A stretch of 64,000 bases of DNA, from assembly GCA_002205965.3 (NCBI GenBank), contig NADL03000096.1, forward strand, positions 1-64,000, written 5' to 3'. The stretch is from Kappaphycus alvarezii (lineage: Eukaryota; Rhodophyta; Florideophyceae; Gigartinales; Solieriaceae). The position numbers were made by a program, and so were the translations under genes. This document shows positions 6,690-64,000 of the stretch, piece after piece; position 1 is the first letter of the stretch; every line of letters begins with the position of its first letter. Below the pieces are notes generated by a model. It was not told the origin of the DNA and searched no databases. It saw only the letters and a program-made list of their open reading frames with translations.

Positions 6690-7935
6690 AGTCGTCTCCC
6701 TCCTCTGAATTTAACATACTGTAGTAAATTCTCCTTCACTAGTTTGCTTATAACTGCGGTCCTCACTCGTCCTCTTTTACTTTGCTCAGCCCTAAACAGA
6801 TGCTACCTAATCTTCCCTGTCCGTTCTTACCCTTCCTGTGGTCCTCAACAAATTTACGGTCGTTCTACCTACATATTCTAATACTGTACCCGCCCCTATA
6901 AATCGATCCAAAATCAAGTTCTTCCTCCCTTTTTTCTAATATCTTCCAAATTCATTTTTTCTGAGAAGAAGGGCGCAAATTAACTAGTGCAAATTACCGT
7001 TTGGATTTATTTTATCTATTTCAAATCTATATAATGCACTCGCGGGAGCCCATTCGATCCCCTTCCTTCCAAGTTTCAAACCTTCCCGATCATTCTATTA
7101 ACTACTCTACCCCTCCCACTCGAAACACACTCGATTGCCTGCCACTCTGCACTAAAAAATTATTGAAAAACTTATGCCTCTCCAACGCCATTTCCAAAAC
7201 TCGCCACCCCAGCCCTTTAAACGTTATTATCTTTCTCCCTTTCGGTCCTACTGACCGCGATGAATATCTCCACCGGAAAGCAAAGAAGAAGGTAATCGAT
7301 TTCGTTCGTCATGCATTCGTCAAGGATGGAGCTGAGGTTGACTTTTTGGGAGTGGGCGACAACCGGATTGGTTTACAAGGATGAGACGAGTATGAAAACG
7401 AAGATGACTACAAGAAGAGCTATAAGGACGAGGAGGACGAGGACAGGGACGATGAGGATGAGGAAGAATTGGAAAGTGTTGGTATGGTGGGGCAGGGGCT
7501 GGATAACATGGACCAGGTGGTCCCGAAGCTGGGAGCATATAGGGGCATCTTTAGTGATTTAGATATCTTTTAGGAGGAAATAGAGATTTGTAAGCCGCTT
7601 GCGGATATTTGTGGGAACGTTATGGTTGGTATGAATTTTTTGGATGATTTTTTGGATCCAGTGTGGATAATTGAAATTGTAAGTATTAGGATCGTTCCCC
7701 TGTCTATTTAGAACCTCCTAAGTATCCTCTACTGGGACTCTAACGTCCACAGAAATTATTTCTATGGAGTTTTTGATACCTAGTATGGTTTAAGCAAGGC
7801 TTTAGGGATAGAAAAAATTATATATAAGCTGGCTAAACTGCTTTTTCAAGCGGAGGTCAAGCAAGGTGGGAGACAAGTTGAAAGTCTTACTTGGGTAGGA
7901 ACAAAGTTGAGAGTCATAAATCGTTCTTGTTACCT
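6690..7935 (+). mobile_element. old acidic-ORF LTR, subfamily A
   Basis: Aligns along its length with the plus-strand LTR at 40348-42297: the tactgtagtaaattc-like block near the left side, gcggtcctc...aaatttac, atactgta, gagaag.gggcgcaaat, the reading frame, then the downstream TATA block tatataagctggctaaactg near 7825. Many substitutions mark it as one of the oldest copies. The upstream TATA found in other copies (TATTTAAA) is lost here. Both termini have decayed, so no target duplication can be read. Confidence 0.6.
7145..7384 (+). pseudogene. LTR-encoded acidic protein, decayed copy
   Basis: The frame keeps the family N-terminal half: LKNLCLSNAISKTRHPSP, then FGPTDRDEYLHR and KKVIDFVRHAF, corresponding to ISKNRxPRP, GPTDxDDYxRR and IEFVRRLF of other copies. 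The initiating Met-Asn-Asn is gone. After residue ~75 the frame leaves the acidic region through frameshifts; an out-of-frame remnant of the Asp/Glu repeats and of the SLVMVGQGLDNMDQVV-type segment follows up to about 7570. Confidence 0.6.
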
Positions 7936-14499: not shown

Positions 14500-15288
14500 T
14501 TTACTTCACCGCGTTCCTTTCTTCTTCCTCCTGTTCATCATCATCCTCGTCACCCTCGTAGACCAATTCCGGGGCCGCTCGACCCTCGGAAGTCTCCCCA
14601 GCACCCTCCTTGACTTCCAACTCCTGCCCCTCACCTACTACTTCCGCCTCATCCTCGACGAACAAGCGACGCACGAATTCGATCACCTTGTTTTTGGTTT
14701 GTCGGCGTAGGTAGTCATCACGGTGAGAAGGTCCGAAAGGGAGTAGGGGAATGGATTTTAGGGGGCGGAGGTGGCGATTTTTGGAAATTTCTTTCGAGGG
14801 ACATAGGTTGTTCATTTCGGTGGGCTTTGGGGAGTGGTACGCAATTTAGGGTGTTTTGAGTGGGCAGAGGGAGAGGAGTGGTGAGTACAATGATCGGGCA
14901 CATTTGAAACTTGGACTAAAAAGGTTTAAATTGGCTCCCGAGGGCGCATGACATAGGCTTTGAATATGTAAAGTAAATCTACATCGGAATTTGTAGTAGT
15001 ACACGTCCGCCATCTTTCTGAAAAAAATGAATTTGGAAGAGGAGGTAAGCGAAAAGAGAAAAGGACTTGATTCGGGATCGATTCGGAGGGGTAGATACAG
15101 TATAAAAATATCTAGATGAAATGGGAGTGAATTTGGAGAGGACCGCGATAAGGATAAGCAAGGCTCAGGGAGGGCGAGGAAGGGCCAGAACTACAAGCAA
15201 TTTTGGACAAGGGGAGGTAGTACAGTAAATTAAAAGTCAGTAGATGACGAAGACAAAATAATACGTTCTGATCCGAACGCGCCTAACA
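14500..15288 (-). mobile_element. acidic-ORF LTR, subfamily A, 3'-truncated
   Basis: The right edge ...cgcgcctaaca (15288) is the LTR terminus (TGTTAGGCGCG on the minus strand). Reading leftward it contains the expected blocks: tttactgtac, the atactgta block, ttttttcagaaagatgg, a TATA-like tttaaattgg near 14925, and the start of the reading frame at 14815. The LTR is lost after about codon 104, next to an L2 3' end. Confidence 0.65.
14501..14815 (-). pseudogene. LTR-encoded acidic protein, N-terminal half
   Basis: Frame of 104 residues starting MNNLCPSKEISKNRHLRPL, followed by FGPSHRDDYLRR and NKVIEFVRRLFVEDEAEVV, then an acidic run DEDDDEQEEEE. Start chosen at the conserved Met-Asn-Asn, with aaATGaac context as in the other copies. 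The frame runs out of the family at its truncated end, so the C-terminal FGSDLENGK block is missing. No stop interrupts the preserved part. Confidence 0.65.
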
Positions 15289-22209: not shown

Positions 22210-22224
22210 CGAGGACGTCAACAG

Positions 22225-22241
22225 TCCGGGGGAGGGAATAG
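22225..22241 (+). other. chromovirus polypurine tract
   Basis: agtccgggggagggaatag just before the LTR TG; conserved in the inverted copy at 36536-36552. Confidence 0.65.
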
Positions 22242-25584: not shown

Positions 25585-27114
25585 TGACAGCGGTAAATCG
25601 TCGGGGAAAGAAGTACTCAGACCCAACTTCCCCAAGAAGGAGGTGTTGCAAGCGACAAAAGTGCTACCGTGGTAAAGTTGAACGAACAAAAAGGAGTGTA
25701 TCTGGAAGAGCGTTGAGAGTTCTACAAGCAAGTATGGAAGTAGCAGGGTCTACCACTGATGCTCTGTGACCAGCATAGGAAAAGTTTTTCTTGGGTATGA
25801 AGTTGACTCTCAACTTCCTACTACTCGGTACTTGGCTTGAAGTTGTCTGCCAACTTGCTTGACCTCTCCATAAGGAAGCAGTTTACCCAGCTTATATAGA
25901 ATTTTGGCTACCTCTAAAATCCGAACAAAACCACAGAAGGTACCACGAAATTCATAAAAATAATTTATGTGGACGATATACTCTAAACAAAAGATGCTTA
26001 AGAAACTAACAATCAATGAGGTCCTCTTATTTCCCATTCTCTAAATCAGATCCAAAAAACTCCTCGAAAATATCCATGCTCTCCAAGCAGTCCCCACAAA
26101 TATCTGCGAACGGCTCATAGCTCTCCATTCCCTCCTGGGAGATATCTAAACTACTAAAGATATCTCCATCCGGTTCCAGCGTCGGCACCACTTTTTCCAT
26201 ATTCTCCAGTCCAGGAACCACCAGTCCAACACTTTCCATGCCCTCTGTTCCCTCATCCACCTCGTCCTCGTCCTCATCATAACCCCCCTTCCTCCCCTGC
26301 CTCCTATTATTATTCTTCCTCTTCCTCCTCTTTTTCCTCTTCCTCCTCTTCCTCCTCTTCATCCCCCCCCTTTATTAACCTCGTAGACCAATTCAGGGGC
26401 TACTTACTCCTCGAAGGTCTTCCCAGCTCCCTCCTCGACGTCCCATTCCCGCCCCTTACCTACCTTCTCCGCCTCATCCCCAATAAAAAGGCGACGCACG
26501 AATTCGATCACCTTCTTTTTGGTTTGCCGGCGCAGGTAGTCATCACGGTCAGTAGGTCCGAAAGGGAGTAGGGGAATAGAGTTTAGGGGGCGGGGATGGC
26601 GATTTTTGGATATGACTTTCGAGGGGCATAGATTGTTCATTTTGGTAGGCTTTGGGGCATGGGAGGCAATAGAGGGTGTTTTGGGTGCGTAAGGGGAAAG
26701 GGTGATGAGTAAAATGATCGGGGACGTTTGAAACTTGGAATAAAATGGTTTAAATAGGCTTCCGGGGCAGGTTCTATAGATTAGTAATAGGTAAAATAAA
26801 TCTGCAAGGGATTTTTCAGTAGTGCATTTGCGCCCTTTTTCTCAAAAAAAGCGAATTTGGAGGAGGACGTAAGCTAAAAGGGGAAAAGAACTTGATTCGG
26901 GATCGATTCAGAAAAGCAGATACAGTATAAAAATATCTAAGTAAAATGGAAGTAAATTTGGAGAGGACCGCGGTAATGATAAGCAAGGCTCTCGGAGGAC
27001 GAGGATGGACCGGGACTATAAGCAATTTTGGACACGGGGAGGTAGTACAGTGTAAACTAAAAGTCTGTAGATGACGGCCACAAAAAATCCGTTCCTATCA
27101 GCACGCGCCTAACA
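25585..27114 (-). mobile_element. solo acidic-ORF LTR with target duplication GGTAT
   Basis: The minus strand starts TGTTAGGCGCG (27114) and ends ACCGCTGTCA (25585). GGTAT is present at 25580-25584 and at 27115-27119. Length 1530 bp. Contains a TATA tatttaaacc near 26755, the reading frame 26640-26027, a second TATA tatataagctgg near 25893, and the usual end region. A single LTR with intact duplication means the internal region was lost by LTR-LTR recombination. Confidence 0.9.
26027..26640 (-). pseudogene. LTR-encoded acidic protein, broken copy
   Basis: N-terminal frame (26404-26640): MNNLCPSKVISKNRHPRPLN, FGPTDRDDYLRR, VIEFVRRLFIGDEAEKVG, then a stop at EE*VAPEL, shared with the copy at 41304-41855. 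After an acidic tract with a frameshift, the frame 26027-26362 carries DEDEVDEGTEGMESVGLVVP, LEPDGDIFSSLDISQEGMES, DICGDCLESMDIFEEF and FGSDLENGK. Both conserved ends are thus well kept while the middle is broken. Confidence 0.75.
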
Positions 27115-29290: not shown

Positions 29291-29392
29291 AATAGATTTT
29301 TGACGTCGGATATCCCTTCGATGTGGTAGTGGTAAATCTTTACGGGTTGTACAATGTCGCACAGAAGCGTGCGGAGGGTATTCATAAATCAA

Positions 29393-30950: not shown

Positions 30951-30957
30951 CTGCGTA

Positions 30958-34323: not shown

Positions 34324-35414
34324 TGTCGGAACGAAAAAGGTCCTCTTCGCATCTTGAAATCCGTCTTTGACCAATCGTCCTACCTTTGTCTTCCCAAGAC
34401 AATTTCTGAATATCTTTTTTCTTTATGAATCCAAATTCACTGTACAACTCCATTTTCTATTTTATGTTTGAATATTTGGTCCTCCCCCTTCAAAGAGACG
34501 CCTTTCAATTCGTGGTCTTTTCGCCCCCCAAATTCAGTTCCGATATTTTATCACGCAGATTTTTATGATGTCCCCGAATTCATGCAAATCTAAGGCCGCA
34601 GTATCGCCTTTTTTTTGACCAAGGCCATGATCTTTACCAAAGACATGCCCCTATTTAAAGTGCTATAGCATTGTCGCTGAAGCATCACTACTACCACCAA
34701 CAATTTGATAAGCTGATTACCCTTTCTGTCAACATCCGCAACCCCGCTCACCCCTTTTCCAGAAATATGACGTCAACTCGCCCCTCTGTCCCTATCTCCA
34801 AAAACCGCCCTTCTCGTCCCATCACGGGCCTCCGTCTCGCCGCCTACGGGCCAAACGATGCCGACGACTACATCCAGCGGCAAACTAAGAACAAAATCAT
34901 CGAGTTCGTTGGCCGCCTCTTCATAGAAGAAGAGGCGAGGGAGGTAAGTGAGGATGAGACTGAGAAAGTCGAGGAGGAGAGCGGGGAGTCCTTCGAGGAA
35001 TGGTTAGCCCCTGAGCTAGTGTATAAGACTCAGGAGAAGGATGGGGAGGAAGACGAGGAAGACTAGGAAGGCGAGGAAGACGAGGAAGACGAGGAAGACG
35101 AGGAGGAGGCAGAAGATGAGGATGATGAGGACGAGGACGAGGAAGAGGTGGATGAGGGAACAGAGGGCATGGAAAGTGTTGGACTGGTGGGCCCTGGACT
35201 GGAGAGTATGGAAAAAGTTGTGCCGACGCTGGAACCGGATGGAGATATCTTTAGTAGTTTAGATATATCCCAGGAGGGAATATAGAGCTATGAGCCGTTC
35301 GCAGATATTTGTGGGGACTGCTTGGACAGCATGGATATCCACGGTAGCACTTTTGTCGCTTGCGACACCTCCTTTTTGGGGTATATATCTTCTCCCGACG
35401 ATTTACCCCTATCA
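34324..35414 (+). mobile_element. solo acidic-ORF LTR, subfamily B, duplication GGCTC
   Basis: Starts TGTCGGAACG, ends TTACCCCTATCA. GGCTC flanks it at 34319-34323 and 35415-35419. Its first ~380 bases match the copies at window start and 61313 rather than subfamily A, while the reading frame and the 3' end match A. TATA tatttaaagtg at 34653. About 390 bases between the frame's end and the cggtagcac block, including the second TATA, are deleted, giving 1091 bp. Confidence 0.85.
34767..35342 (+). pseudogene. LTR-encoded acidic protein, two nonsense codons only
   Basis: ATG 34767 (aaATGac) starts MTSTRPSVPISKNRPSRPIT, then YGPNDADDYIQR, IIEFVGRLFIEEEAREV, EEWLAPELVYK and a long Glu/Asp run. 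TAG interrupts at 35064 and again at 35283 (both GAG in other copies), yet the frame is otherwise continuous from Met to the DICGDCLDSMDI block, with no indel in the 500 bases between. The C-terminal FGSDLENGK is removed by the deletion that follows. Confidence 0.75.
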
Positions 35415-39342: not shown

Positions 39343-39412
39343 GTTCGGATGGGACAACTGGAATAAAGGTCGATGAGGTGCCTTTGCTCCTTCCTCCACT
39401 TTGATCTCATGA

Positions 39413-41303: not shown

Positions 41304-41855
41304 ATGAACAATCTATGCCCCTCGAAAGTCATATCCAAAAATCGCCATCCCCGCCCCCTAAACTCTATTCTACTCCCTTTCGGACCTACTGATCGTAATG
41401 ACTACCTGCGCCTGTAAACAAAAAAGAAAGTGATCGAATTCGTGCGTCGCCTTTTTATTGAGGATGAGGCGGAGGAGGTAGGTAAGGGGCGGGAGTGGGA
41501 CATCTAGGAGGGAGCTGGGGAGACCTCCGAGGAGTAAGTAGCCCCTGAATTGTTCTACAAGGTTAATAAGGGGGAGGATGATGAGGAAGAAGAGGAGTAA
41601 GAGGAGGATGATGAGGACGAGGTGGGTGAGGGAACAGAGGGCATGGAAAGTGTTGGACTGGTGGGGCCTGGACTGGAGAGTATGGAAAGAGTTGTGCTGA
41701 CGCTGGAACCGGATGGAGATATCATTAGTAGTTTAGATATCTCCCAGGAGGGAATAGAGAGCTATGAGCCGTTCGCAGATATTTGTGGGGACTGCTTGGA
41801 GAGCATGGATATTTTACAGGAGTTGTTTGGATCTGATTTAGAGAATGGGAAATAA
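41304..41855 (+). pseudogene. LTR-encoded acidic protein, nonsense codons but no frameshift
   Basis: ATG in aaaATGaac. MNNLCPSKVISKNRHPRPLN, FGPTDRNDYLR, VIEFVRRLFIEDEAEEVG, a Glu/Asp tract, EGTEGMESVGLVGPG, LEPDGDIISSLDISQEGIES and DICGDCLESMDI through FGSDLENGK-stop are all in one frame of 183 codons. Four stops interrupt it: TAA for Gln of RRQTK, TAG after WDI, TAA after EE (shared with 26404) and TAA in the acidic tract. Confidence 0.8.
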
Positions 41856-45524: not shown

Positions 45525-46041
45525 TCAAGGAAAATATCTGTATCTACTCCTCACAATCGTTATTCTCAAGATCAGAACCAAATAACTCCTCCAAAATATC
45601 CATACTCCCAATGCAATCCCTACAAATTCCCTCGAACGGCTCAGATGATAAATGGCTTCATCAGACATATCAAGATCCTCCAACCCTTCCTCGCGACCCT
45701 CAGCCTCCGCGCCAACCCCATCCGAAGAATCCGAGACAACGATCACGCCCTCACTATCCCTCCATCCCCACAGCAACTCCCCACGATTATACACCATCGG
45801 TTCCCACGGAGCTACAAAGTCTTCCTCATCCTCGGATCCTCCACGTCCGACTCAGTCCCCTCTGACTCTCCTCCTCCGCCTCCTCCAAGAAGTGCCGACG
45901 AACCCACTCCCGAACACGCTCACGGTCCATCCTCCTGAAGTAGTCGTCGTAGTCTGTTGGCCCATTATTCATTAGAGCTAGGCCGTTGATGGGCGAGAGG
46001 GGCGGCTTTTGGGATGGGGGCGGAGGGCGAAGTTTGTTCAT
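45525..46041 (-). pseudogene. LTR-encoded acidic protein with SUMO-motif-like stretch, frameshifted
   Basis: First frame: MNKLRPPPPSQKPPLSPING, NNGPTDYDDYFRR, RVREWVRRHFLEEAEEE. After a frameshift near 45830: VYNRGELLWGWRDSEGVIVV then SDSSDGVGAEAEGREE. The VIVVSDSSD segment is the hydrophobic-plus-acidic pattern of SUMO-interacting motifs. The C-terminal block is only recognisable out of frame (ccaaataactcctcc, equivalent to the EELFGSD codons). Closest to the copy at 60270-60779. Confidence 0.6.
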
Positions 46042-48081: not shown

Positions 48082-48768
48082 ATGACGGTAACATTGTTCT
48101 TCCTCGGTCCCAAGCCGCCGCTGCCGTCCGTTTCATCCAGCTTGAAGGAGGTCCACTACGGTTCCAGCTCAACCTTGCCAAGACCCAAGTTTACGGCTTC
48201 TCCCCTTCCCACTCCCCTTTGGCACTTTCTTGCCCCTTTTCAACCCCCCCTGGTTTCATTGTGCTGGGATCCCCCGATTGGCTCGGACCCTTTTGTTTCC
48301 CAATTTTTCGCAGGCCGCCAAAACGCAGTTGACCGCATCTTCCAATCCTTTCGAGACTTGGATGATCCTCAATTGGCTTTCCACTTACACCGCTTCTGCG
48401 CGAACACCTCCAAGGTCATGCACTTGCTACGTACGCTTCCCTTCACTCAATTTGCGGTACTCGCCGCTAGCTTCGATCAGAAGCAGGGGGAAGGGTTCCA
48501 CCAATTGCAGATATCCTGTCCAGAGCGAGCCTGGCTCCAAGCCTCTCTCCCCTTCTCCATGGGCGGTCTAGGTCTCCTGCAAACTTCAGGCATTACCAAC
48601 GCTGCTTACGCAGCATCTATAATTGATTCTTTTGGACTTATCTCCGACCTGCTCACTCTTTCCAGGACCGCAATTGGAAGAGATCCCTCGGTCCGCCATC
48701 TCGCTCTTATCCTCCCGCCACCCGCAGCTGTCTTCGTCGCTTACAGCTACGGCTCTTTTCGAGCACTG
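48082..48768 (+). pseudogene. L1 RT thumb
   Basis: SDPFVSQFFAGRQNAVDRIF then QSFRDLDDPQLAFHLHRFCA, PFSMGGLGLLQTSGITNAAY and AASIIDSFGLISDL. Ends at the gypsy insertion. The last codons before it (SYGSFRAL) are in a shifted frame. Confidence 0.7.
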
Positions 48769-49075
48769 TGATAGGGGTAAATCGTCGGGAGAAGAGATAC
48801 TTAGAACCAACTACCCCAAGACGGAGGTGTTGCGAGCGACAAAAGTGCTACCGTGGTATAGTTGAACAAATAAAAAGCAGTGTATATGGGAGAGAGTTGA
48901 GAGGGCTACAAGCAAGTATAAAAGGGGCAGCGTCTACCACTGATGCTCTGCGACCAGCTTAGGAAAAAGTTTTCTTGGGTTTGAAGTTGACTCTCAACTT
49001 CCTACTACTCGGAGCTTGACCTGAAGTTGTCTGCCAACTTGCTTGACCTCTCCATGAGGAAGCAGTTTACTCAGC

Positions 49076-49083
49076 TTATATAG
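49076..49083 (-). promoter_or_regulatory. TATA 2, downstream of LTR acidic ORF
   Basis: TATATAAG on the minus strand, in ctatataagctgagtaaac. It is retained even in the most decayed copies (7825, 24270). It lies about 300 bases before the LTR end and so could start the genomic RNA, placing the acidic ORF in U3. Confidence 0.6.
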
Positions 49084-49210
49084 ACTTTTGGCTACCTGTA
49101 AAGTCCGAACAAAACTACAGAAGATACCAAGAAATGCATAAAAATACTTTGTGTGGACAATATGCTCTAAGCAAAAGATACTTAAGAAACTAACAATTAA
49201 TTTGGTCCTC

Positions 49211-49750
49211 TTATTTCCCATTCTCTAAATCAGATCCAAACAACTCCTCTAAAATATCCATGCTGTCCAAGCAGTCCCCACAAATATCTGCGAATGGCTC
49301 ACAGCTCTCTATTCCCCCCTGGGAGATATCTAGATTACTAAATATATCTCCATCCGGTTCCATCGTGGGCACAACTTGATCCATACTCTCCATTCCAGGC
49401 CCCACCAGTCCAACACTTTCCATTCCCCCTGTTCCCTCATCCTCCTCCTCCTCCTCATCCTCCTCATCCTCCTCATCCTTCTCCCGAGCCTCGTGCACTA
49501 GCTCAGGGGCTAACCATTCCTCGAAGGATTCCCCGCTCTCCTCCTCGACCTTCTCAGCCTCTCCCTCACTTACCTCCCTCGCTTCTTCTTCTATGAAGAG
49601 GCGGCGAACGAACTCGATGATTTGCTTCTTTGTTTGCCGCCGGATGTAGTCGTCGGCATCGGTTGGCCCGTAGGCGGCGAGACGAAGGCCATTGATGGGA
49701 CGGGAAGGGCGGTTTTTGGAAATAGGGACAGAGGGGCGAAGGTTGTTCAT
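49211..49750 (-). CDS. LTR-encoded acidic protein, intact reference copy
   Basis: 179 residues, complete, no known domain recognised. MNNLRPSVPISKNRPSRPIN, then LAAYGPTDADDYIRR and IIEFVRRLFIEEEAREV form the conserved N-terminal half (residues 1-60), probably helical. FEEWLAPELVHEA follows, then an acidic run of Asp/Glu (residues ~98-112). The C-terminal half has GMESVGLVGPGMESMDQVVP, EPDGDIFSNLDISQGGIES, DICGDCLDSMDILEEL and FGSDLENGK. Net charge strongly negative; no signal peptide or membrane segment. ATG chosen because it is conserved with context tcaaaATGaac about 105 bases after TATA 1. It lies in the LTR, so every copy of the LTR, including solo LTRs, carries it with its promoter. Its position in U3 recalls LTR-encoded accessory proteins of some retroviruses, but there is no sequence resemblance; role unknown. 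Confidence 0.8.
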   Translation of the reverse strand: MNNLRPSVPISKNRPSRPINGLRLAAYGPTDADDYIRRQTKKQIIEFVRRLFIEEEAREVSEGEAEKVEEESGESFEEWLAPELVHEAREKDEEDEEDEEEEEDEGTGGMESVGLVGPGMESMDQVVPTMEPDGDIFSNLDISQGGIESCEPFADICGDCLDSMDILEELFGSDLENGK

Positions 49751-49859
49751 TTTGATAGACGTCGGGGAACGGGAGGCAATGTAGGGTGTTTTGGGTGTGT
49801 GGGGGGAGAGAGGTGATGAGTAAAATGATCGGGGGCATTTGGAACTTAGAATAAAGGGG

Positions 49860-49867
49860 TTTAAATA
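49860..49867 (-). promoter_or_regulatory. TATA 1, upstream of LTR acidic ORF
   Basis: TATTTAAA on the minus strand, within gcctatttaaacccc; present in the copies at 26755, 34653, 41189, 46142, 57320 and, as tttaaata, at 60930. About 105 bases before the ATG, like the TATA-ATG distance of the MYB gene. Confidence 0.65.
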
Positions 49868-50209
49868 GGCTCCCGGGCAGGTTCTATAGATTAGGAATAG
49901 GTAAAATAAATCTGCAAGGGATTTTGTAGTATTGCATTTGCGCCCTTTTTCTCAAAAAAAACGAATTTGGAGGAGGAGGTAAGCAAAAAGGGAAAAAGAA
50001 CTTGATTCGGGATCGATCAGAGGGGTAGATACAGTATAAAAATATCTAGATAAAATGGAAGTAAATTTGGGAGGACCGCGGTAATGATAAGCGAGGTTCA
50101 GGGAGGACGAGGAAGGACCGGAACTATAAGCAAATTTGGACAAGGAGAGGTAGTACAGTAAACTATAGGCCTGTAGATGACGGCGACAAAAAAAAATCTG
50201 CGCCTAACA

Positions 50210-50220
50210 CCCCCCGGACT
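50210..50220 (-). other. gypsy polypurine tract
   Basis: AGTCCGGGGGG on the minus strand, directly before the 3' LTR TGTTAGG. Confidence 0.75.
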
Positions 50221-50244
50221 TAGGTCGAACGTCCCGTCTCGTTC

Positions 50245-50661
50245 TCAATGCTCTTGTTGTTCTTGTGGGAGTTCTATCCATTCATCAGGGAGAGTATAGG
50301 GTTCACTATAAGGATATGGTAGTAGCTCATTTCCAATATGATGAGAGAGTGTGTACCGTGCGATGACCGGCTCATCTCCTTGGTCAAGAGTTTCGTAGAT
50401 TCGGCGTATAGTTTCATAGTGTTCTCTAATGAGCTCCTCCCGTTTCACTTCTCCAAACCTTCCAAATGTGAGGTAATAAACGTAGTATGCAAACTTTTCT
50501 GGCAACGGGTCCAGAAACGGGTATCTGAAGGAGAAAAAAACTCGCAACATAAGGACTGAGTCCTCACGAGTAAGGTGCGCCCCGTGAATGGTCTGGAAGC
50601 ACATGCAAATACTAATTGCAAAAAAGGAAATTACTTCTGCTTCTCGTGGGTCCTCTGTCAT
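50245..50661 (-). CDS. second copy of post-integrase domain
   Basis: 138 residues from ATG 50661; the same frame is open further upstream (ILNYWTAAIRRWLRE just before the Met) and overlaps the end of the preceding frame. EAEVISFFAISICMCFQTIH then GAHLTREDSVLMLRVFFSFR, EKFAYYVYYLTFGRFGEVKR, YETIRRIYETLDQGDEPVIA and YTLSHHIGNELLPYPYSEPY align with the equivalent blocks of the previous frame. Not an envelope: no signal peptide or long membrane span. Probably expressed as a fusion by frameshift, or once in frame and later shifted. Function unknown. Confidence 0.65.
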   Translation of the reverse strand: MTEDPREAEVISFFAISICMCFQTIHGAHLTREDSVLMLRVFFSFRYPFLDPLPEKFAYYVYYLTFGRFGEVKREELIREHYETIRRIYETLDQGDEPVIARYTLSHHIGNELLPYPYSEPYTLPDEWIELPQEQQEH

Positions 50662-50698
50662 TTCGCGAAGCCAACGTCTAATTGCAGCCGTCCAATAA

Positions 50699-51601
50699 TT
50701 AAGGATGCATAGTTTCCCCCTGGGAGACTAGGCGGTGTTTGAGGCGATCTTCTTGGCGATCTTCCTCGCTGCTCCCGACGCCTTGCCTCTTCGATGATCC
50801 GCCCCGATCACTTGATGGTCCAGCTCGTATCATCATCACGGCCTCGGGAGGATCCTGGTCTTCGGCTGAGGTTGTGTTTCTGAGCGGAGCAACGTAAGGT
50901 TCCCATAGAGGATACGGGACCAGTCGATATTCCATATCAGGGGGCAAGCTGTAACCTCTCAGTCGCACATCTTGGTTGTTCTTAAGAAATACGTAAACCG
51001 GACGGATAATGTTCAGATATGTTTGCGACAAGTCTCCGATAGCTACCATTCCATACCTTCCTATAGAGTAATGATATATGACTTCCACAAACTCTGGACC
51101 TGCTTCCGTGAACCTTCCGTTTTGGAATGAGAATAGAATTCTGATCAATAGTCGGAAATCTTCTTGAGGTAGCAATGGTCCGTTCAACGTACGAAAACAT
51201 AGGCATATATTAATGTAGAAATGGACGATTACGTGGAGTTCGTAGTAGTCACGCGTAATCGAGATGATCCATTCCCAGGCCCTTTTTCCTCCCATAGGAA
51301 TCATTCTATAGTTAAAGATGAGTATGCCCCGTGGTTGCGCATAGTCCTGTGTGAGAAGGAATTCTTCAGGCCTCTGATGGTAAGGGACTAGACGACGTGC
51401 ATGGATGGCCCTCCTTGATCTCTTCCCTGAGCTTGAACATAGCTTATAGTGCGGGTGTCTTTCCTCCGTGACGACGCAAGGATTCGAGTACTTTGTTTGG
51501 AAGGCCGGCCACTTCACAGCCTGCTGCATTGCTTTCCCATGTACTACAAGTACTTTAGAGCCGACTGAAAGGTTTGGACTGGAGGCTCTTCATTCTTATT
51601 T
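50699..51601 (-). pseudogene. integrase C-terminus plus first copy of post-integrase domain
   Basis: The 276-residue frame 50699-51529 is open upstream to about 51601 (SVGSKVLVVHGKAMQQAVKW), i.e. the integrase C-terminal module with HPHYKLCSSSGKRSRRAIHA then RRLVPYHQ. The new domain follows: RAWEWIISITRDYYELHVIV, INICLCFRTLNGPLLPQEDF, LLIRILFSFQNGRFTEAGPE, HYSIGRYGMVAIGDLSQTYL, IIRPVYVFLKNNQD and LPPDMEYRLVPYPLWEPYVA. The last ~60 residues are Ser/Arg/Glu-rich. A frameshift near 51590 separates it from the core. Confidence 0.65.
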
Positions 51602-52786
51602 CTTGTCTGTGTTAGCGCGCGGTGTGATCTCCAGCCTTCAGTGGCCAGTAGTTCGACTTCTCTACTCTCTTCATCGATAATATTTGTTTCCATGTCTCTC
51701 TGTAACATTCTAGGAGCCCTTCCGTACATTAGCTCGAATGGTGACCGTCCGCTTCTTCCTCTTCTTCGACGATAGCCGTATAACACTTTTGGTAAGGCAT
51801 CTTCCCACTGGATTTCATTCTCGACATAGTTTTCGATATTGCTCGTTTGATGGTTCCAACCATCCTCTCCGCTTTACCGTTTGACATAGGAGCGTATGCG
51901 AGAACTGTCTTCAGCTGAATCCCTTCTCTTCCAAGAAACGAAGCAGTGAAGTTGCAGTAAAACAAAGGGCGTTATCTGAGATGATCCTTTTTGGAAGACC
52001 AAACGGTTCAATTATTTCTTTTTCGATGAATCTCAGGACCACCTCAGCATTGGCCTCCTCAACTGCAACTGCTATTGGCCATCCAGTAAGATGTTCCACC
52101 CCTATAAGGAGGTATTTGTTTCCGGAAGAGGTTTCCTTGAATGGGCCGGCAAAGTCAATTGAGAAGGTTTCAAAGAGAGCGGAAACTGGGAAGCTTAGGG
52201 TTGTCTTATACTTTCGTATCGGAGTGAATTTTTGACAGTTGTCACAGCTTTTCACGAAATTATAGACGTCCTTATGGATACTGGGCCACCAGAATCTCTC
52301 CGTAATGAATTTTTTGGTTGTTTCGAGATCCCAATGCCCTAACTCATCATGAAAAGTCCTCAAGATCTTGATTCTTTCTTTCAAAGGGGCCACTAGTCGA
52401 GGACCGGCTTTTGTGTGTCGGAAGAGTTTCCCATTCCACAATGTAAAGGCCTTTTGGTTCCTGCGTACCCAATTTCTGTGTTCGAGATCAACCTTTCTCA
52501 TTTCTAGTCCATCAAGGAATTTAATAAGTCCGTGAATATAAGCTTCGTACTCGTTATCGATCGGCACTTGAACTTCGGCAACTCCGACGATGTCTTCGGA
52601 AGCTTTTTCATTTGGAATCAATGGATCCCTCAAGCGGGATAGGTAATCGGCAGGCTGATTATTGCGTCCGGGCCTATACACAATTTCAAACCGATATTCT
52701 GCGAAAATGTCGAGCCATCGGGCCAAGCGGTGATGTACATCTTTCTTTTGGAATGCTGTCTTAAGTGCCTGGTGATCAGTTATCAA
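51544..52786 (-). pseudogene. gypsy RNase H end and integrase core
   Basis: Frame 51911-52786: ITDHQALKTAFQKKDVHHRL and FEIVYRPGRNNQPADYLSRL end RNase H; HDELGHWDLETTKKFITERF, WWPSIHKDVYNFVKSCDNCQ form the HHCC box; FETFSIDFAGPFKETSSGNK and GLPKRIISDNALCFTATSLL carry two catalytic Asp. After a frameshift, YAPMSNGKAERMVGTIKRAI has the Glu (51729-51965). SGRSPFELMYGRAPRML follows in a third frame. Catalytic residues all present. Confidence 0.8.
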
Positions 52787-52845
52787 GACAAATTTCTCGA
52801 GTGATAAAAGGTAAACACGAAACTTTTTCAGTGCGAAGACGACAG

Positions 52846-53715
52846 CTAGCGCTTCTTTCTCCAGACTGAGTATCTCTTTTCCGCATCATTCAGAGTGCGA
52901 CTTGCGAATTGAACAGGGTGTAGTCTTCCGTTTTCGTCTTTTTGGGACAAAATGGCACCCAAAGACCGTTCTGAGGCATCTGTCTCCACAACAATGGTCT
53001 CTTGAAATCTGGATACATGAGCACTGGGGGACACATAGCTTATCTTTAAGCTCCTCAAATGCAGTCTGCATTTCCTTGTTCCAGTAAAATTTTCCGTTCT
53101 TCGTAGTGCTGGCATGTAACGGTGCTGCAGTTTTGGCGAAATCTTTGATAAATCTTCTGTAATATGAGGCCAGTCCTAAGAAGCTTCGAACCTCCGTCTT
53201 TGAAGCGGGCCTGGGTGCCAACTTGATTTTTTTCGTTTTCTCTGGATCCACTTTAATTCCCTCTTGATCGACGATATGACCGAGTAATTGGATAGACGTT
53301 TTCGCAAAGAAGCATTTGCTTAACTTAATTTTCAGGCTGTACGCATCTATTTCTCCACCACAGTCTTGACATGCGATATGTGCTGATCCAAGGTTTTTGA
53401 GAATATCACCACATCATCGATATAAACTCTTGCAAATGGAAGTCCTTTCAAAACCTCGTTCATCATTCTTTGGAATGTAGCTGGGGCATTCATGAGACCA
53501 AAAGGCATCACTTCGAACCTGAATGTACCGGCTTTGCTGGTAAAAGTTGTTATTTCCTTACATTTTTCATCTAATGGAATCTGCCAATAACCAGTGTAAA
53601 GATCAATTGAGGTGAAGTATCTCCCGTCCTTCAAGTCCTCGAGGATTTCTCCATGTTTGGAATCGGAAATCGATCGGGTATCATTCTCTGGTTCAGTTGT
53701 CGGTAATCGACGCAA
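52846..53715 (-). pseudogene. gypsy reverse transcriptase and RNase H start
   Basis: YFTSIDLYTGYWQIPLDEKC, PFGLMNAPATFQRMMNEVLK, RVYIDDVVIFSKTLDQ (YIDD intact), then in another frame ASKTEVRSFLGLASYYRRFI, and VVETDASERSLGAILSQKDE then PVQFASRTLNDAEKRYS (RNase H). A frameshift near 53730 divides RT from the preceding protease frame. Confidence 0.8.
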
Positions 53716-53742
53716 AAACGAAGTTTTCCATCTTCTTTGGTG

Positions 53743-55095
53743 CTACACAACTGGAAATGACCATGGGGATGAAACTGGCCGAATAATATCATTTTCCAGC
53801 ATACTTGTAACATTCTCTGAGATAAATTGGTCATATTTTGGCGGTTGACGTCTAGGCCTGTGGTAAATTGGTTGAGTATCGGTAAGTTCAAATGAGTGAG
53901 TGACCGGTACACTTGCTTGTCTTAAATCTGATACACTCCATGCAATTACTTCGGAAGATGCTAACATGTCGGATATTTTCAGTGAGGCGGCGGCGGGAAG
54001 GTGCTGCACTTTTCCTTGGATTTCTGCCATTTGGCGCCCTTTTTCTTCTTGATTCTCAACCTCAATATTTTGAAGGACCTTTTCCGGCGTGCTCACATCT
54101 TCAGATATGGAATCCGATATATTCCTGTTTTCCTTGCAATTGTAATCTTCTTTCATGCTCCGAATTCCGTCCTTTGATTCGATATTATCGCAAAAAGAAA
54201 CACATTCAGGTGTCACACCTACCCTAGAATTCCAGTCTTCATCTGTTTCAAACCCAGAATCATAATCATCCCATGCCATGTTCAGTATCCCCCGAGCGTA
54301 CCCTTCTCCACTTCCGAAAGTGTTAGTTGGTTCGAAATCTTCGCTGTCATAGCTAGAAGTGAAATCTTCACTGTCCGTTTCTTTCAAATCTACCGGATGT
54401 GTGCTTTTGTCGAAATCCAGGGGCATCTTCACGGTTCTGCCGTCAACATTAACTGAAACGATTTGGTTGCCCAAGTCAATGCAGGTCCCTAGTCTTTCCA
54501 TGGTAGGGCAGCCAATGATTGCATCGAAAGGGAGATCAGGCATGACAAGAAAGTCTAAATCAACTTTAGAGTCCCCAAAGAACACGGAAACCTTGTCAAC
54601 AGTGCCCATGCATTTTGATACGGTTCCATCCGCCACAGTTATTCTTCGAGTAGTTGGAATAATTTCAAGACCTAGATCTGTCACCAAAGTTTCTGAAATA
54701 AGGTTTGGAACAGCGCCCGAATCGAAAAGAGCTTGGGTTTGCATTCCCAATACTTTGACTGGTACTAGTTTAAGACGTCTTGGTGCTGTCGAGGCCGATT
54801 GAAGAAACAGTTTCTTACCCTTAGCGGACTTATTAGACCTGATAATTTTTTTGAGTTCTTTCCTCGCGTCCTCTGCGTCGCCCCTCAAAAGTTGACCAAA
54901 CGTTATCCCAGTTGGGGCTGATGCAAGCTCAGCCACCAAATTGTACTTCTTCACATATTCTAGTACGTCCTTTGGGATATTCTTAAATTTCTTACTCTTT
55001 TTCGTCTTCTTGGCCGGAGTGACTCCAACTCCTGGAACAACTTGATCAGACCTCTTGGTTCGAGGAGGTACAGGTGCTGGGATATGTTCCAGCAT
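53743..55095 (-). pseudogene. gypsy protease and RT N-terminus
   Basis: 450 residues. Basic start TKRSDQVVPGVGVTPAKKTK then KSKKFKN. Protease: MQTQALFDSGAVPNLISETL with the DSGA active site, LPFDAIIGCPTMERLG. Then a spacer rich in Asp/Glu, and PIYHRPRRQPPKYDQFISEN then MLENDIIRPVSSPWSFPVV, the beginning of RT. Enters by the -1 shift at 55113-55119. Confidence 0.75.
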
Positions 55096-55103
55096 TCCAT
55101 AAT

Positions 55104-55643
55104 CTAGCCTAGGTTTTTCGATAAAATGTTCCCTTCCCCATCCCTTTTTGTCACATTGACTTGACTGATTTCTTCAGCGATGGATACGTTACCGGCATCC
55201 GTCAACTTGTGATCCTTTCTGTTTTGTAAGATTTTCATCTCTGGTCCTGACTCGCTCCTTGCGTCCGATAAATTTGCTTTTCTGTTGTCTTTAGACCAGC
55301 AGTTACTTTCATGATGCCCATATCGACCGCACTTTCCACAACGAGTGTTTCTATGTGGATTATCAGGACACCTATTTGCAAAGTGTCCAGGCTTGTGACA
55401 GTAGGAACAGACTTCTGCGGCCTTGGGGGCCCCAGACTGGTTCTTCTTAATGGTAAGAGTAAGGCTTTCCAACTGCGAGGTTATCATGTCAAGTCGATTA
55501 TCGAATCGGGTTTCCAACCTTTCTTCCAAGTTTTTGACATCGCTCCTGACTGATTCCAATGCTGCTGCGCTAGTCGCTGGCCTTTGATAATTCTTTTCAG
55601 GATGTACGATAGACAGATGTACGGGTTTCCCTCGGTATTTCAC
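55104..55643 (-). CDS. gypsy gag, coiled-coil and double zinc knuckle
   Basis: 179 residues; the true start is in the preceding frame, joined by a +1 shift near 55620. SVRSDVKNLEERLETRFDNR is a coiled-coil-like segment; CSYCHKPGHFANRC and CGKCGRYGHHESNC are two CX2CX4HX4C zinc knuckles for RNA binding. The C-terminus ends at the gag stop 55104-55106. Confidence 0.75.
   Translation of the reverse strand: MKYRGKPVHLSIVHPEKNYQRPATSAAALESVRSDVKNLEERLETRFDNRLDMITSQLESLTLTIKKNQSGAPKAAEVCSYCHKPGHFANRCPDNPHRNTRCGKCGRYGHHESNCWSKDNRKANLSDARSESGPEMKILQNRKDHKLTDAGNVSIAEEISQVNVTKRDGEGNILSKNLG
55113..55119 (-). other. apparent -1 frameshift site between gag and pol
   Basis: GAAAAAC in the gag frame TCG AAA AAC, nine bases before the gag stop. 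Slipping back one base puts ribosomes in the frame EKPRLDYGMLEHIPAPV of the protease ORF. The heptamer follows the X XXY YYZ layout except that X is G. A real programmed site is plausible, but pol has other indels too, so chance is not excluded. Confidence 0.5.
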
Positions 55644-56160
55644 TTAGTGACTGAAACGTCTCCGAATTTTTGACAAATTCTACTATGGTACCCTTCAGTT
55701 CATTAAAAGTGTGAGGGCCCTTGATGAGGAGGAAATCGGAGAGCCGCTTATCCCCCATCGCCGCCTTACGCAGCATTCCGTACTTGGCTTGGGCGTTGAA
55801 CCCAGCCTTTTCATAGAGATCACACAAGTATACCAATGAGCTTAACAAATCGTCGAAGTTGAGCCGGGCCTCTATGGCGGTACGAATCATCTCATCTGGT
55901 TCTACCTCCTTAGCATATTCTTTCACAAGCCACTCACATACCTCACCGAAGTTACGCCCATTCCCGTTAAGAGACCACCCGTTGATAAACTTGGCCTTAT
56001 ATTTGTGCTTTGCGTCACCATGAAGATAGGCGAAGATACTTTCGGCCTTCTCTTCATCGCTCTTCTCACGCATCACAACGTTGACATATGTATAGAGAAA
56101 CTCCTCAACGTCTTCATTCTTGCCCCCTGTGAACGTTATACGAGCAGCGTTGAGATCCAT
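55597..56160 (-). pseudogene. gypsy gag, capsid region
   Basis: 187 residues from ATG 56160, 70 bases after the primer site. MDLNAARITFTGGKNEDVEE then FLYTYVNVVMREKSDEEKAE and SIFAYLHGDAKHKYKAKF have the capsid layout (F.G....V..FL......A...L.G.A...). The frame ends at 55597 where it overlaps the knuckle frame. Confidence 0.75.
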
Positions 56161-56230
56161 GATTACAGAAAAGAAATCCCCTCGAATGGTTCCCTAAGAC
56201 TGCTCAACTCGAATACCTCGGGTGCAAACC

Positions 56231-56248
56231 CCCTCCACAAGAGTACCA
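56231..56248 (-). promoter_or_regulatory. gypsy primer-binding site
   Basis: TGGTACTCTTGTGGAGGG on the minus strand, two bases inside the 5' LTR. The TGG start matches a tRNA 3' CCA. The tRNA could not be identified by eye. Confidence 0.55.
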
Positions 56249-56250
56249 AA

Positions 56251-57672
56251 TGATAGGGGTAAATCGTCGGGAGAAGAGATACTTAGAACCAACTACCCCA
56301 AGACGGAGGTGTTGCGAGCGACAAAAGTGCTACCGTGGTATAGTTGAACAAATAAAAAGGAGTGTATATGGGAGAGAGTTGAGAGGGCTACAAGCAAGTA
56401 TAAAAGGGGCAGGGTCTACCACTGATGCTCTGCGACAGCTTAGGAAAAAGTTTTCTTGGGTTGAAGTTGACTCTCAACTTCCTACTACTCGGAGCTTGAC
56501 CTGAAGTTGTCTGCCAACTTGCTTGACCTCTCCATGAGGAAGCAGTTTACTCAGCTTATATAGACTTTTGGCTACCTGTAAAGTCCGAACAAAACTACAG
56601 AAGATACCAGAAATGCATAAAAATACTTTGTGTGGACAATATGCTCTAACAAAAGATACTTAAGAAACTAACAATAATTTGGTCCTCTTATTTCCCATTC
56701 TCTAAATCAGATCCAAACAACTCCTCTAAAATATCCATGCTGTCCAAGCAGTCCCCACAAATATCTGCGAATGGCTCACAGCTCTCTATTCCCCCTGGGA
56801 GATATCTAGATTACTAAATATATCTCCATCCGGTTCCATCGTGGGCACAACTTGATCCATACTCTCCATTCCAGGCCCCACCAGTCCAACACTTTCCATT
56901 CCCCCTGTTCCCTCATCCTTCCTCCTCCTCATCCTCCTCATCCTTCTCCGAGCCTCGTGCACTAGCTCAGGGGCTAACCATTCCTCGAAGGATTCCCCGC
57001 TCTCCTCCTCGACCTTCTCAGCCTCTCCTCACTTACCTCCCTCGCTTCTTCTTCTATGAAGAGGCGGCGAACGAACTCGATGATTTGCTTCTTTGTTTGC
57101 CGCCGGATGTAGTCGTCGGCATCGGTTGGCCCGTAGGCGGCGAGACGAAGGCCATTGATGGGACGGGAAGGGCGGTTTTTGGAAATAGGGACAGAGGGGC
57201 GAAGGTTGTTCATTTTGATAGACGTCGGGGAACGGGAGGCAATGTAGGGTGTTTGGGTGTGTGGGGGAGAGAGGTGATGAGTAAAATGATCGGGGCATTT
57301 GGAACTTAGAATAAAGGGGTTTAAATAGGCTCCCGGGCAGGTTCTATAGATTAGGAATAGGTAAAATAAATCTGCAAGGGATTTTGTAGTATTGCATTTG
57401 CGCCCTTTTTCTCAAAAAAAACGAATTTGGAGGAGGAGGTAAGCAAAAAGGGAAAAAGAACTTGATTCGGGATCGAATCAGAGGGGTAGATACAGTATAA
57501 AAATATCTAGATAAAATGGAAGTAAATTTGGGGAGGACCGCGGTAATGATAAGCGAGGTTCAGGGAGGACGAGGAAGGACCGGAACTATAAGCAAATTTG
57601 GACAAGGAGAGGTAGTACAGTAAACTATAGGCCTGTAGATGACGGCGACAAAAAAAAAATCTGCGCCTAACA
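56251..57672 (-). repeat. gypsy 5' LTR
   Basis: 1422 bp; pairs with 48769-50209. Most differences are one-base deletions in this copy, often in short runs (e.g. gaccagc/gacagc, cccccctggg/ccccctggg), and very few are substitutions. Confidence 0.95.
56690..57213 (-). pseudogene. LTR-encoded acidic protein, 5' LTR copy (indels)
   Basis: Same as 49211-49750 through EEEAREVSE, then a one-base deletion (ctctcctcac versus ctctccctcac) sends it out of frame at residue ~65. Several further one-base deletions follow. If these are assembly errors, the true copy would be intact. Confidence 0.7.
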
Positions 57673-59808: not shown

Positions 59809-61313
59809 TGATAGGGGTTAATCGTCCGGAGAAGAGACACTCAGAACCAACTACCCCAAGAAGGAGGTGTTGCAAGCGACAAAAGTGCTACCGCGGTATA
59901 GTTGAACGAAAAAAAAGGAGTGGATAAAGAAGACAGTTGAGAGGGCTACAAGCAAAAATCGAAGGGGTAGGGTCTACCACTGATGCTTTGCGACCAGCGT
60001 AGGAAAAACTCTTCTTGGGTCTGAAGTTGACTCTAAACTTCCTACTACTCGAGACTTGACTTGAAGTCGTCTGCTAACTTTCTTGACCTCCACAAGAGGA
60101 AGCAGTTTACTCCGCTTATATGTACTTTTTGGCTAACCCTAAAGTCTCAAAAAGACATATTTAGAACCATAAAATGCATCAATTGGAACCGTGTGAACGA
60201 GAAAGACTAACAGCAGGTACTATTAGGATAAATATCTAGGTTCATTCCTTAATATCTTAGTCCTCTATATCAGAGCCAAACAGTTCCCCCAAAATATCCA
60301 TTCCACCCAGGCAGTCCGAATTTTTTTCCCCCGAACGGCTTAGAATTCTCCATTGCCTCTTGGGAGATATCTAGACCACTGAGGATGCCCCTATCCGGTT
60401 CAAGAGTCGGGACCACCTGGTCCATATTTTCCGGTCCCTTCCCCACTATTCCAGCACTTTCCATGTCTCTCTCCTCCTCATCACCCTCATCCTCCTCATC
60501 CTCCTCTTCACTACTATCTTCATCTTCATCAGAAGAGTCAGAGATCACAATTACTCCCTCAGTCTCCTCTTCGTTCTCCATAGGAGCCCCTCCACCGTTG
60601 TACACTAGTGACTCCCACGGGTCCACCCAGTCCTCCTCTTCCTCTTCATCCTTCTCTTCCTCCTCCTCCTCCTCTGCCTCTTCTGCTTGCTCGAAGCAGT
60701 TACGATGGACCCACTCCCGAACTCCTTCCCAGTCAAATCTTCTACAGTAATCGTCGTGGTCGATTGGATCATTTGCCATCAGGGCCAGAGAGTTGAAGGG
60801 ACGGTGGCCTCTGGATGACTTGGCGATAGGGAAGGGCGGAGGATGGTCATGTTAAGGGCCAAAAAAGGGGTGAGCCTATGGGGTAGTTGATAGCGGGAGG
60901 GTTGCCTCAAAGACGTCGATTTCGGACTTTAAATAGGGCAACGTATTCGAAAAGTTTCACGGCCTTGGACGAAATAAAAAATGTGAGTCAATGCCACAGC
61001 TTTGAATTTGCATGCGATTAGGACAATAGCTAAAAATCTGCTTGATAAAATATCGGAACTGAATTTGGAGGACGAATAGGATCACGAGTCGAAAGATTCC
61101 TATTTTGAAAAAGGAGGACCAAAATGCTCAAACAAAAAATAAAAATGGAGTTTCACAGTGAATTTGGATTCATGGGGAAAAATTGTTTCAGTATTTTGTT
61201 CGTAAAAGAGAATTGGTTTGAAGAGTCGTTTTTGAAAACTCATTGGGAAGGAGAAGACAGAGGTTTGTGGAGAGCACCACTCTCCTACAGATAGGACCGT
61301 TTTCGTACCAGCA
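59809..61313 (-). mobile_element. acidic-ORF LTR, subfamily B
   Basis: Left end TGATAGGGG; right end ...tttcgtaccagca (61313) parallels TGTCGGAACGAAAA of the copy at 34324. Left flank GACTG, right flank GTGGA: no duplication, so it may be part of a deleted element or a rearrangement. Contains frame 60270-60779, second TATA (ttatatgtac, about 60120, damaged) and TATA 1 (tttaaata near 60930). Confidence 0.65.
60250..60855 (-). pseudogene. LTR-encoded acidic protein with SUMO-motif-like stretch
   Basis: The ATG aligned with other copies (60852) gives MTILRPSLSPS and runs into a stop through a one-base shift; the frame from 60779 is open for 169 codons: MANDPIDHDDYCRR, GVREWVHRNCFEQAEEA, a Glu run, WESLVYNGGGAPMENEEETE then GVIVISDSSDEDEDSSEEED, MESAGIVGKGPENMDQVVPT and LEPDRGILSGLDISQEAMEN. 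The final block is in a shifted frame. GVIVISDSSDEDED is a textbook-like SUMO-interacting motif: four hydrophobics, then Ser/Asp. Confidence 0.7.
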
Positions 61314-63800: not shown

Positions 63801-64000
63801 TGAACCTTTTTGCGCTTTTTAAACATGTCGCGCCCGCCTAAAATTTATCTTCTTCCCTATAAGAACAAAGATTCGGAAACTCCCAGCCCTCCTTGACAGC
63901 CATCATGCACCGACTACCTCTTTCTTGCCCTATTTCGAAAACCCGTCACCCTCGCCCCATCATCGTCTCTCCTTTATTCCCTTCCTGCCAAACCGAAGTC
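63800..64000 (+). mobile_element. acidic-ORF LTR, start of another copy (runs off window)
   Basis: tttttaaacatg TATA-like box at 63815, ATG 63905, frame MHRLPLSCPISKTRHPRPII to the window end. PISKTRHPRP matches the conserved N-terminal block. The subfamily cannot be told. Confidence 0.55.
63905..64000 (+). CDS. LTR-encoded acidic protein, partial
   Basis: 32 codons open to the edge of the window; the ISKNRxPRP block is present as ISKTRHPRP. The remainder lies beyond base 64000. Confidence 0.55.
   Translation, partial: MHRLPLSCPISKTRHPRPIIVSPLFPSCQTEV

What the first reader, a model, noticed from the sequence alone, without database searches (positions are those of the whole stretch)
49211..49750. 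LTR family that encodes its own conserved acidic protein
The LTR pair of the element 48769-57672 carries an intact 179-residue frame entirely inside the LTR. About ten LTRs in this window contain the same frame or its remains (7145, 14501, 26027, 34767, 41304, 45525, 49211, 56690, 60250, 63905). Seen: the same N-terminal (ISKNRxPRP, GPTDxDDYxRR, EFVRRLF) and C-terminal (DICGDCL, FGSDLENGK) blocks recur across diverged copies, while the acidic middle varies. Inference: protein-level selection has acted on it while the LTRs spread. LTR-encoded proteins are known in a few retroviruses; I know of none of this kind in Ty3/gypsy elements.
Basis: partly seen in the sequence, partly recalled or inferred. 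Interest (0 to 1): 0.88.

Follow-up and report, generated by a model that had tools for sequence, protein, structure and literature searches.

The report
Jumping gene's end repeats encode protein
A family of virus-like jumping genes in a eukaryotic genome carries, inside its end repeats (usually just control DNA), a gene for a small acidic protein that natural selection has preserved as a protein while the family spread, an arrangement otherwise known mainly from a mouse tumour virus and its relatives.

Summary
Confirmed and extended. A Ty3/gypsy-order element (48769-57672, minus strand, 5-bp target duplication) has a 179-codon frame wholly inside its 3' LTR; the frame in the paired 5' LTR is frameshifted. 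In the 336-Mb host assembly, three searches each listed 40 near-full-length places (2,665-3,308 unconfirmed first-look candidates). I compared 58 copies of types I and II and 21 of type III. Within a type, synonymous and non-synonymous rates are similar (dead copies decaying). Between types, N-terminal synonymous sites are near saturation (pS 0.75-0.96) while pN is 0.22-0.41. Shifted frames and non-coding LTR do not show this, so selection acted on the protein. The frame has its own TATA box 117 nt upstream (about 85 nt in type III, whose upstream DNA is unrelated). A second TATA box, the most conserved 10-mer tested outside the frame, lies 129 nt downstream, so the frame probably sits in U3. 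No homologue was found in the libraries searched. Closest parallel: MMTV Sag, by layout only. Most likely a nuclear, acidic regulator of the element's own LTRs; that function is inferred, not shown.

The parts
48769..57672 (-). Ty3/gypsy-order LTR retrotransposon; gag-pol lies in several frames
   Evidence: LTR pair; 5-bp duplication; PR, INT and a weak RNase H match; frames
48769..50209 (-). 3' LTR, 1441 bp, TG..CA
56251..57672 (-). 5' LTR, 1422 bp, 98.1% identical to the 3' LTR
48764..48768 (.). target-site duplication CACTG (other copy 57673-57677)
49211..49750 (-). LTR-encoded frame, 179 codons plus stop, type I: basic N-terminus (+7), acidic middle (-26), acidic-hydrophobic C-terminus (-16), pI 4.05
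49860..49867 (-). P1: TATTTAAA box, first base 117 nt upstream of the ATG
49075..49082 (-). P2: TATATAAG box, 129 nt downstream of the stop; CTATATAAGC is the most conserved 10-mer tested outside the ORF
56688..57213 (-). frameshifted copy of the frame in the 5' LTR
56232..56248 (-). primer-binding-site-like TGGTACTCTTGTGGAGG just after the 5' LTR
50210..50221 (-). polypurine-tract-like AAGTCCGGGGGG directly before the 3' LTR
7163..7648 (+). diverged type II frame in an LTR remnant (65.6% DNA identity)
14513..14815 (-). type II N-terminal half, open
26030..26640 (-). type II frame, interrupted
34767..35339 (+). type I frame behind an upstream region unlike that of the reference LTR; two stops
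41304..41852 (+). type II frame with several in-frame stops
45525..46041 (-). type III frame, decayed
60260..60839 (-). type III frame with the GVIVISDSSDE motif; 169 codons open from 60779
63905..64000 (+). start of a very diverged copy (about 41% aa identity) that runs on to about base 64442 of the contig

Best explanation
The LTR is a promoter and end repeat that also holds a small gene. SHOWN by sequence: the frame is a protein gene that evolved under purifying selection in the spreading lineages of this element. It is found intact in 5', 3' and solo LTRs, exists in at least three deep types, and its N-terminal half differs between LTR backgrounds far more than the DNA around it, as if exchanged. 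INFERRED: it lies in U3, because the best conserved TATA box (P2) is downstream of it. It is transcribed from its own TATA box (P1), so every LTR, solo LTRs included, could in principle make it. INFERRED, less sure: the 20-22 kDa product (basic N-terminus; long acidic run; C-terminal acidic-hydrophobic clusters such as GDIFSSLDIS and SMDILEELFGSDLE) is a nuclear regulator, most likely an activator of the family's own LTR promoters in trans.
For: Selection: 28 x 30 copies; fixed against polymorphic changes, p=7.5e-5 for the ORF outside the acidic run, 0.003 for the N-terminus; eight shifted-frame or flank controls all p>0.05, closest 0.057 and in the opposite direction; eight window copies; types I, II, III in two domains; fixed differences most frequent at codon position 3 in six of six comparisons, significantly so in five. 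Intact frames: 20 of 58, among them 5' LTRs such as L005, 3' LTRs such as L006 and two solo LTRs with exact 5-bp duplications, L007 and L024. Two TATA boxes. P1 is present in 16 of 21 type III copies, in 10 of the 14 measurable ones 84-86 nt before the start, although the type III upstream DNA is unrelated to that of the reference (best BLAST match 23 bp, E 0.005, opposite strand). Shared charge plan, pI 4.05, in one protein of each type. Module pattern: outside the first 150 positions and the ORF the types I and II differ by about 0.05-0.21, positions 481-780 by 0.24-0.55.
Against: No transcript, peptide or homologue is at hand. The structure tool was off. The activator role rests on charge and motif pattern alone. 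P1 is only at the 90th percentile of conservation in types I and II and about the 92nd in type III. A shared 1-bp deletion in each of three ORF blocks, each in three or more copies, suggests that some broken copies also multiplied or that the site is unstable. Types I and II in the C-terminus alone give a weak signal (ratio 0.54; nine fixed differences, p=0.72; p=0.11). One antisense frame gives 0.48, as it shares third positions.
Confidence: 0.55

Rival explanations
1. Same selected LTR gene, but the protein acts on the host: a counter-silencing or chromatin/SUMO-directed accessory factor. Type III carries GVIVISDSSDE, which looks like a SUMO-interacting motif followed by acidic residues (motif recalled).
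For: Motif present in 12 of 21 type III copies. The N-terminal module is the most diverged part of the LTR between types I and II once the swapped first 150 bases are set aside, as expected of a host-facing part; in MMTV the sag region is likewise the most variable (passage).
Against: I saw no such motif in the type I and II proteins printed. No homology to any known suppressor.
Confidence: 0.27
2. The frame is the first cistron of the genomic RNA: P1 starts the genomic RNA, the frame lies in R-U5, and the product is a structural, packaging or translational partner of Gag.
For: P1 is placed like a normal promoter, followed by a C/T/A-rich leader and an AAAATG start. P1 is kept in unrelated upstream DNA.
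Against: P2 is better conserved than P1. An R-U5 of about 1.07 kb would be unusual (recalled knowledge).
Confidence: 0.12
3. No protein: the frame stays open by nucleotide-level LTR constraint or chance.
For: The last codons of the frame are conserved at all positions. Copies within a type show little or no coding signal.
Against: Third-position excess between types in this frame. Few in-frame stops against 8.5-16 in the other forward frames.
Confidence: 0.02
4. A host gene captured by the LTR, or an LTR gene now kept by the host at single loci.
For: Intact frames occur in solo LTRs.
Against: No homologue found. Within-type ratios of about 0.6-1 show no clear selection on individual insertions. 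The host genome was not searched for a single-copy relative.
Confidence: 0.04

Closest known systems
Superantigen (Sag) gene in the LTR of mouse mammary tumour virus and related betaretroviruses
   Same: Gene in an unusually long LTR (MMTV about 1.3 kb because it encodes Sag, passages of PMC3026287; here 1.44 kb). Solo LTRs preserve it (490 of 527 shortlisted sag contigs judged solo LTRs), and a one-ratio dN/dS of 0.289 is reported for a set of the sequences (passages of PMC4667437).
   Different: Betaretroviruses of mammals; Sag is translated from spliced transcripts that start in the 5' LTR or in env, with a promoter inside U3 also described. Here: Ty3/gypsy-order element, a TATA box directly upstream, no sequence relationship found, acidic protein.
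Additional ORFs of plant Ty3/gypsy elements (Grande, RIRE2, Retand and others)
   Same: Conserved extra proteins carried by most copies of a family, with suggested accessory or nuclear roles (passages of PMC7264820).
   Different: Those lie in the internal region, mostly between pol and the 3' LTR, in either orientation; this one lies inside the LTR itself, in sense.
Foamy virus Tas (Bel1)
   Same: Proposed role: element-encoded regulator of its own transcription; 'Tas-mediated transcription regulation' is named in passages of PMC7828637.
   Different: No sequence similarity found; the Tas gene lies mostly upstream of the LTR (recalled); activation not tested here.

Membership tests
Ty3/gypsy (Metaviridae) LTR retrotransposon | pol order PR-RT-RNase H-INT | tested here: met
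   Sense order: PR in 53743-55095 and INT (H2C2 and rve) in 51911-52786 above Pfam cut-offs; an RNase H piece just before INT is below its cut-off (21.1 against 24.8 bits). RT lies between PR and INT: recognised by eye from the YIDD-containing frame 53350-53742, not by a profile.
Ty3/gypsy (Metaviridae) LTR retrotransposon | LTRs with TG..CA ends, target duplication, PBS and polypurine tract | tested here: met
   the tRNA matching the PBS was not identified
Ty3/gypsy (Metaviridae) LTR retrotransposon | RT phylogeny inside Metaviridae | not tested
   No tree was built; the pol search gave seven relatives, four with protease domains listed and one of these also with RT
Sag-type LTR gene (betaretrovirus) | frame lies inside the LTR | tested here: met
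   in MMTV itself the majority of sag lies in U3
Sag-type LTR gene (betaretrovirus) | frame lies in U3 | tested here: inconclusive
   P2 TATA downstream is the most conserved, but no RNA 5' ends are available
Sag-type LTR gene (betaretrovirus) | sequence homology to Sag | tested here: not met
   No Pfam family below E 0.1; no Sag family among the weak matches at E up to 5; no relevant PDB match. No Sag sequence was fetched for a direct comparison.
Plant-type additional ORF (aORF) | located in the internal region | tested here: not met
   Wholly inside the LTR
Transcriptional transactivator | activates the cognate promoter in trans | not testable with these tools
   Only the charge pattern is known

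The most novel reading that the evidence does not exclude
A lineage of Ty3/gypsy elements turned its LTR into a self-contained regulatory gene (own promoter, frame, shared 3' end) encoding a self-activating factor with exchangeable N-terminal modules. Solo LTRs left by recombination then remain potential gene copies, perhaps in their thousands, that could feed activity of the surviving elements, so loss of the internal region does not remove the element's regulator from the genome.
Probability: 0.3. Interest if true: 0.88.

Novelty: new variant of a known kind. Interest (0 to 1): 0.74.

Why it matters
LTRs are treated as non-coding control DNA. A selected protein gene inside the LTR of a Ty3/gypsy element would be a second, independent origin of the arrangement known from betaretroviral Sag. 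It would change how solo LTRs are viewed (possible genes, not only promoters), and annotation that masks LTRs would miss it. It also makes an old idea testable: that an element can encode its own transcriptional regulator and that remnants can act on active copies in trans.

Tried and rejected
Rejected: nucleotide-only conservation. Rejected: chance open frame. Rejected: capture of a known protein (no relevant match; weak PDB, Pfam and NCBIfam matches at E about 0.04-5 look like low-complexity or chance matches). The two protein searches scored 4,387 and 7,999 candidates only.

Naming the host failed: search listings for Kappaphycus alvarezii held no paper that I could match to the assembly; 336 Mb fits what I recall of that red alga, but this is unverified. 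The sigma-70 scan does not apply to a eukaryote. Indel length classes did not separate ORF from flank, since most indels are private decay. tRNA search of the window: none. A link between N-terminal type and upstream type was considered and dropped: type I occurs behind at least two upstream types. and the last part failed with errors; searches are the mended scripts.

Caveats: the 58 copies are the best-scoring hits of two DNA searches, so the intact share (20 of 58) is biased upward. L051 and L053 share their flanks and are probably one locus assembled twice; L053 was dropped (with L041, L009, L013, L034, L017). Rows with an indel inside a block were left out: the N domain used 24 of 27 (after L053), 15 of 30 and 19 of 21 copies of types I, II and III, the C domain 20, 23 and 15. 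Three type III rows (L062, L076, w60) have shifted first codons there.

Full report
WHAT IS THERE. The window is from an assembly of 336,021,096 bases in 884 contigs; its repeats are those of a eukaryote. On its minus strand lies an LTR retrotransposon, 48769-57672, with LTRs of 1441 and 1422 bp that are 98.1% identical, TG..CA ends, the 5-bp duplication CACTG, a primer-binding-site-like stretch and a polypurine tract. Sense order is gag-like frame (55597-56160), zinc-knuckle frame (55104-55643), protease (53743-55095), RT, a weak RNase H match and integrase (51911-52786); the RT was recognised by eye, not by a profile. Its pol is in several frames, so this copy looks dead. In the 3' LTR a 179-codon frame is intact; in the 5' LTR the same frame is frameshifted.

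HOW MANY AND WHERE. Three genome searches (type I, II and III queries) had 2,665, 2,910 and 3,308 first-look candidates; only the best 40 were scored each time, and each listed 40 near-full-length places (one search also lists two short pieces). Candidate numbers are not confirmed counts. Of 58 copies fetched with flanks, 55 reach LTR position 1438 or more and were examined at their junctions: 9 are followed by the primer-binding-site-like stretch (5' LTRs), 10 are preceded by the polypurine tract (3' LTRs), 13 are single LTRs with an exact 5-bp duplication around them (solo LTRs), and 23 stay unassigned, some because the LTR start was not found. Two of the solo LTRs (L007, L024) keep the frame intact. 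In all, 20 of 58 frames are intact end to end, 17 of 28 type I and 3 of 30 type II.

SELECTION. Between types I and II (28 x 30 copies; counting method of Nei and Gojobori) the first 92 codons give dN 0.314, dS 1.607, ratio 0.20; the whole frame 0.32; the C-terminal 73 codons 0.54. Within types the whole-frame ratio is 0.72 and 0.74. The same region read in the five wrong frames gives 1.01-1.36 in four and 0.48 in the antisense frame that shares third positions; LTR DNA upstream and downstream gives 0.57-0.98. Fixed against polymorphic changes: frame outside the acidic run 48.5 N and 41.5 S fixed, 382 N and 130 S polymorphic, p=7.5e-5; N-terminus p=0.003; C-terminus alone p=0.11; eight control frames all above 0.05, the lowest 0.057 in the opposite direction. 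With type III added, the N-terminal domain (57 codons) has pN 0.22, 0.375 and 0.41 against pS 0.75, 0.895 and 0.96 (I-II, I-III, II-III), while within types pN and pS are close (0.024/0.023, 0.069/0.096, 0.100/0.139). The C-terminal domain (67 codons) has dN 0.22 and 0.21 against dS 1.16 and 0.90 to type III, and 0.088 against 0.188 between I and II; shifted frames do not show the excess. Fixed differences are most frequent at codon position 3 in all six comparisons, significantly in five; the exception is I-II in the C-terminus with nine differences. Eight window copies alone show the same between types. So the protein was under selection in the lineages that multiplied, and individual insertions then decayed about neutrally, as expected of a useful gene of a mobile element.

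MODULES. Outside the first 150 positions, types I and II differ by about 5-21% in the non-coding LTR but by 24-55% from LTR position 481 to 780, that is from just after the ATG to the end of the acidic run. The N-terminal half has therefore probably been exchanged as a unit, for instance by template switching (inference). 26 of 28 type I copies match the window's element only from LTR position 141 on; the rows printed begin with another head that has tandem units of about 28 bp. Type III and the copy at 34767 have upstream DNA unlike that of the window's element.

PROMOTERS. In the window copy a TATTTAAA box (P1) begins 117 nt before the ATG, followed by a C/T/A-rich leader and AAAATG; a TATATAAG box (P2) begins 129 nt after the stop. 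P2 (as CTATATAAGC) is intact in 51 of 57 copies, and no 10-mer tested outside the frame is higher; P1 (as CTATTTAAAC) is intact in 46 of 58, at the 90th percentile. In type III the unrelated upstream DNA also keeps TATTTAAA in 16 of 21 copies, in 10 of the 14 measurable ones 84-86 nt before the start; about 8% of upstream 8-mers are better conserved. I infer that P2 starts the genomic RNA and P1 the protein's own mRNA, which places the frame in U3. No RNA data were available.

PROTEIN. 179-199 residues, 20-22 kDa, pI 4.05. Charge +7 to +10 in the first 52 residues, -26 to -40 in the middle, -14 to -16 in the last 70, in one protein of each type. Conserved hydrophobic residues sit in acidic surroundings at the C-terminus. 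Type III also has GVIVISDSSDE in 12 of 21 copies. No homologue was found in a set of 5.8 billion proteins (capped candidate lists), Pfam, NCBIfam, PDB sequences or IMG/VR (77). Protein sets often leave out mobile elements (recalled), so this is weak evidence of absence.

MECHANISM. I commit to an element-encoded accessory regulator, most likely a nuclear activator of the family's own LTRs. Shown: gene, selection, position in the LTR, presence in solo LTRs. Inferred: U3 placement, own promoter, nuclear role, activation. A host-directed accessory role is the main rival.

LITERATURE. MMTV Sag is the close parallel in layout and history (passages of PMC3026287, PMC4667437 and PMC10223558). The plant review PMC7264820 (outline and passages) places additional ORFs in the internal region. 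Term searches inside PMC11963269 and PMC5408684 showed nothing on LTR-located frames. I found no report of an LTR-located frame in a Ty3/gypsy element in the listings of searches; only open-access papers are held, and I did not read the listed papers beyond those named.

Noticed in passing
window 50245-50661 and 50699-51529, minus strand: Between integrase and the 3' LTR the element carries two tandem relatives of one unknown domain (34% identical over 125 aa), the first joined to what looks by eye like the integrase C-terminus; no Pfam match.
   Followed up: partly
L006, L002, L046 and other type I loci, LTR start: 26 of 28 type I LTRs match the window's element only from LTR position 141 on; rows printed show another head with tandem units of about 28 bp (TAATACAGGAAATGGTCCTCCC..), so U3 heads are swapped.
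   Followed up: partly
window 60839-60260 and L059-L078: Type III proteins carry GVIVISDSSDE, resembling a SUMO-interacting motif with acidic tail (12 of 21 copies).
   Followed up: partly
window 31775-32605, plus strand: 276-aa open frame with a Myb-like DNA-binding domain (E 6e-9); possible host gene in this repeat-rich stretch.
   Followed up: no
window 18723-22667 and 36109-40045: Two inverted copies of another element, 98% identical over 3.96 kb, with Ty3-like pol frames by eye.
   Followed up: no
window 30261-30266 against 48764-48769 and 57673: The element sits inside another repeat (LINE-like by eye); a copy of that repeat at 29329-31477 appears uninterrupted at the same point.
   Followed up: no
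window 10162-10501 and 13629-13969: Direct repeat pair of about 340 bp, 95% identical, flanking a zinc-knuckle frame at 11049: possibly the LTRs of another element.
   Followed up: no
L051 and L053: Two contigs carry the same LTR with the same flanks: duplicated assembly or alleles.
   Followed up: no
L059-L078, about 205-235 bases upstream of the ATG: Type III upstream DNA has a well conserved ATATTTTTACAGTTTCTGAATTT stretch, part of which recurs 28 bp further on in most copies.
   Followed up: no
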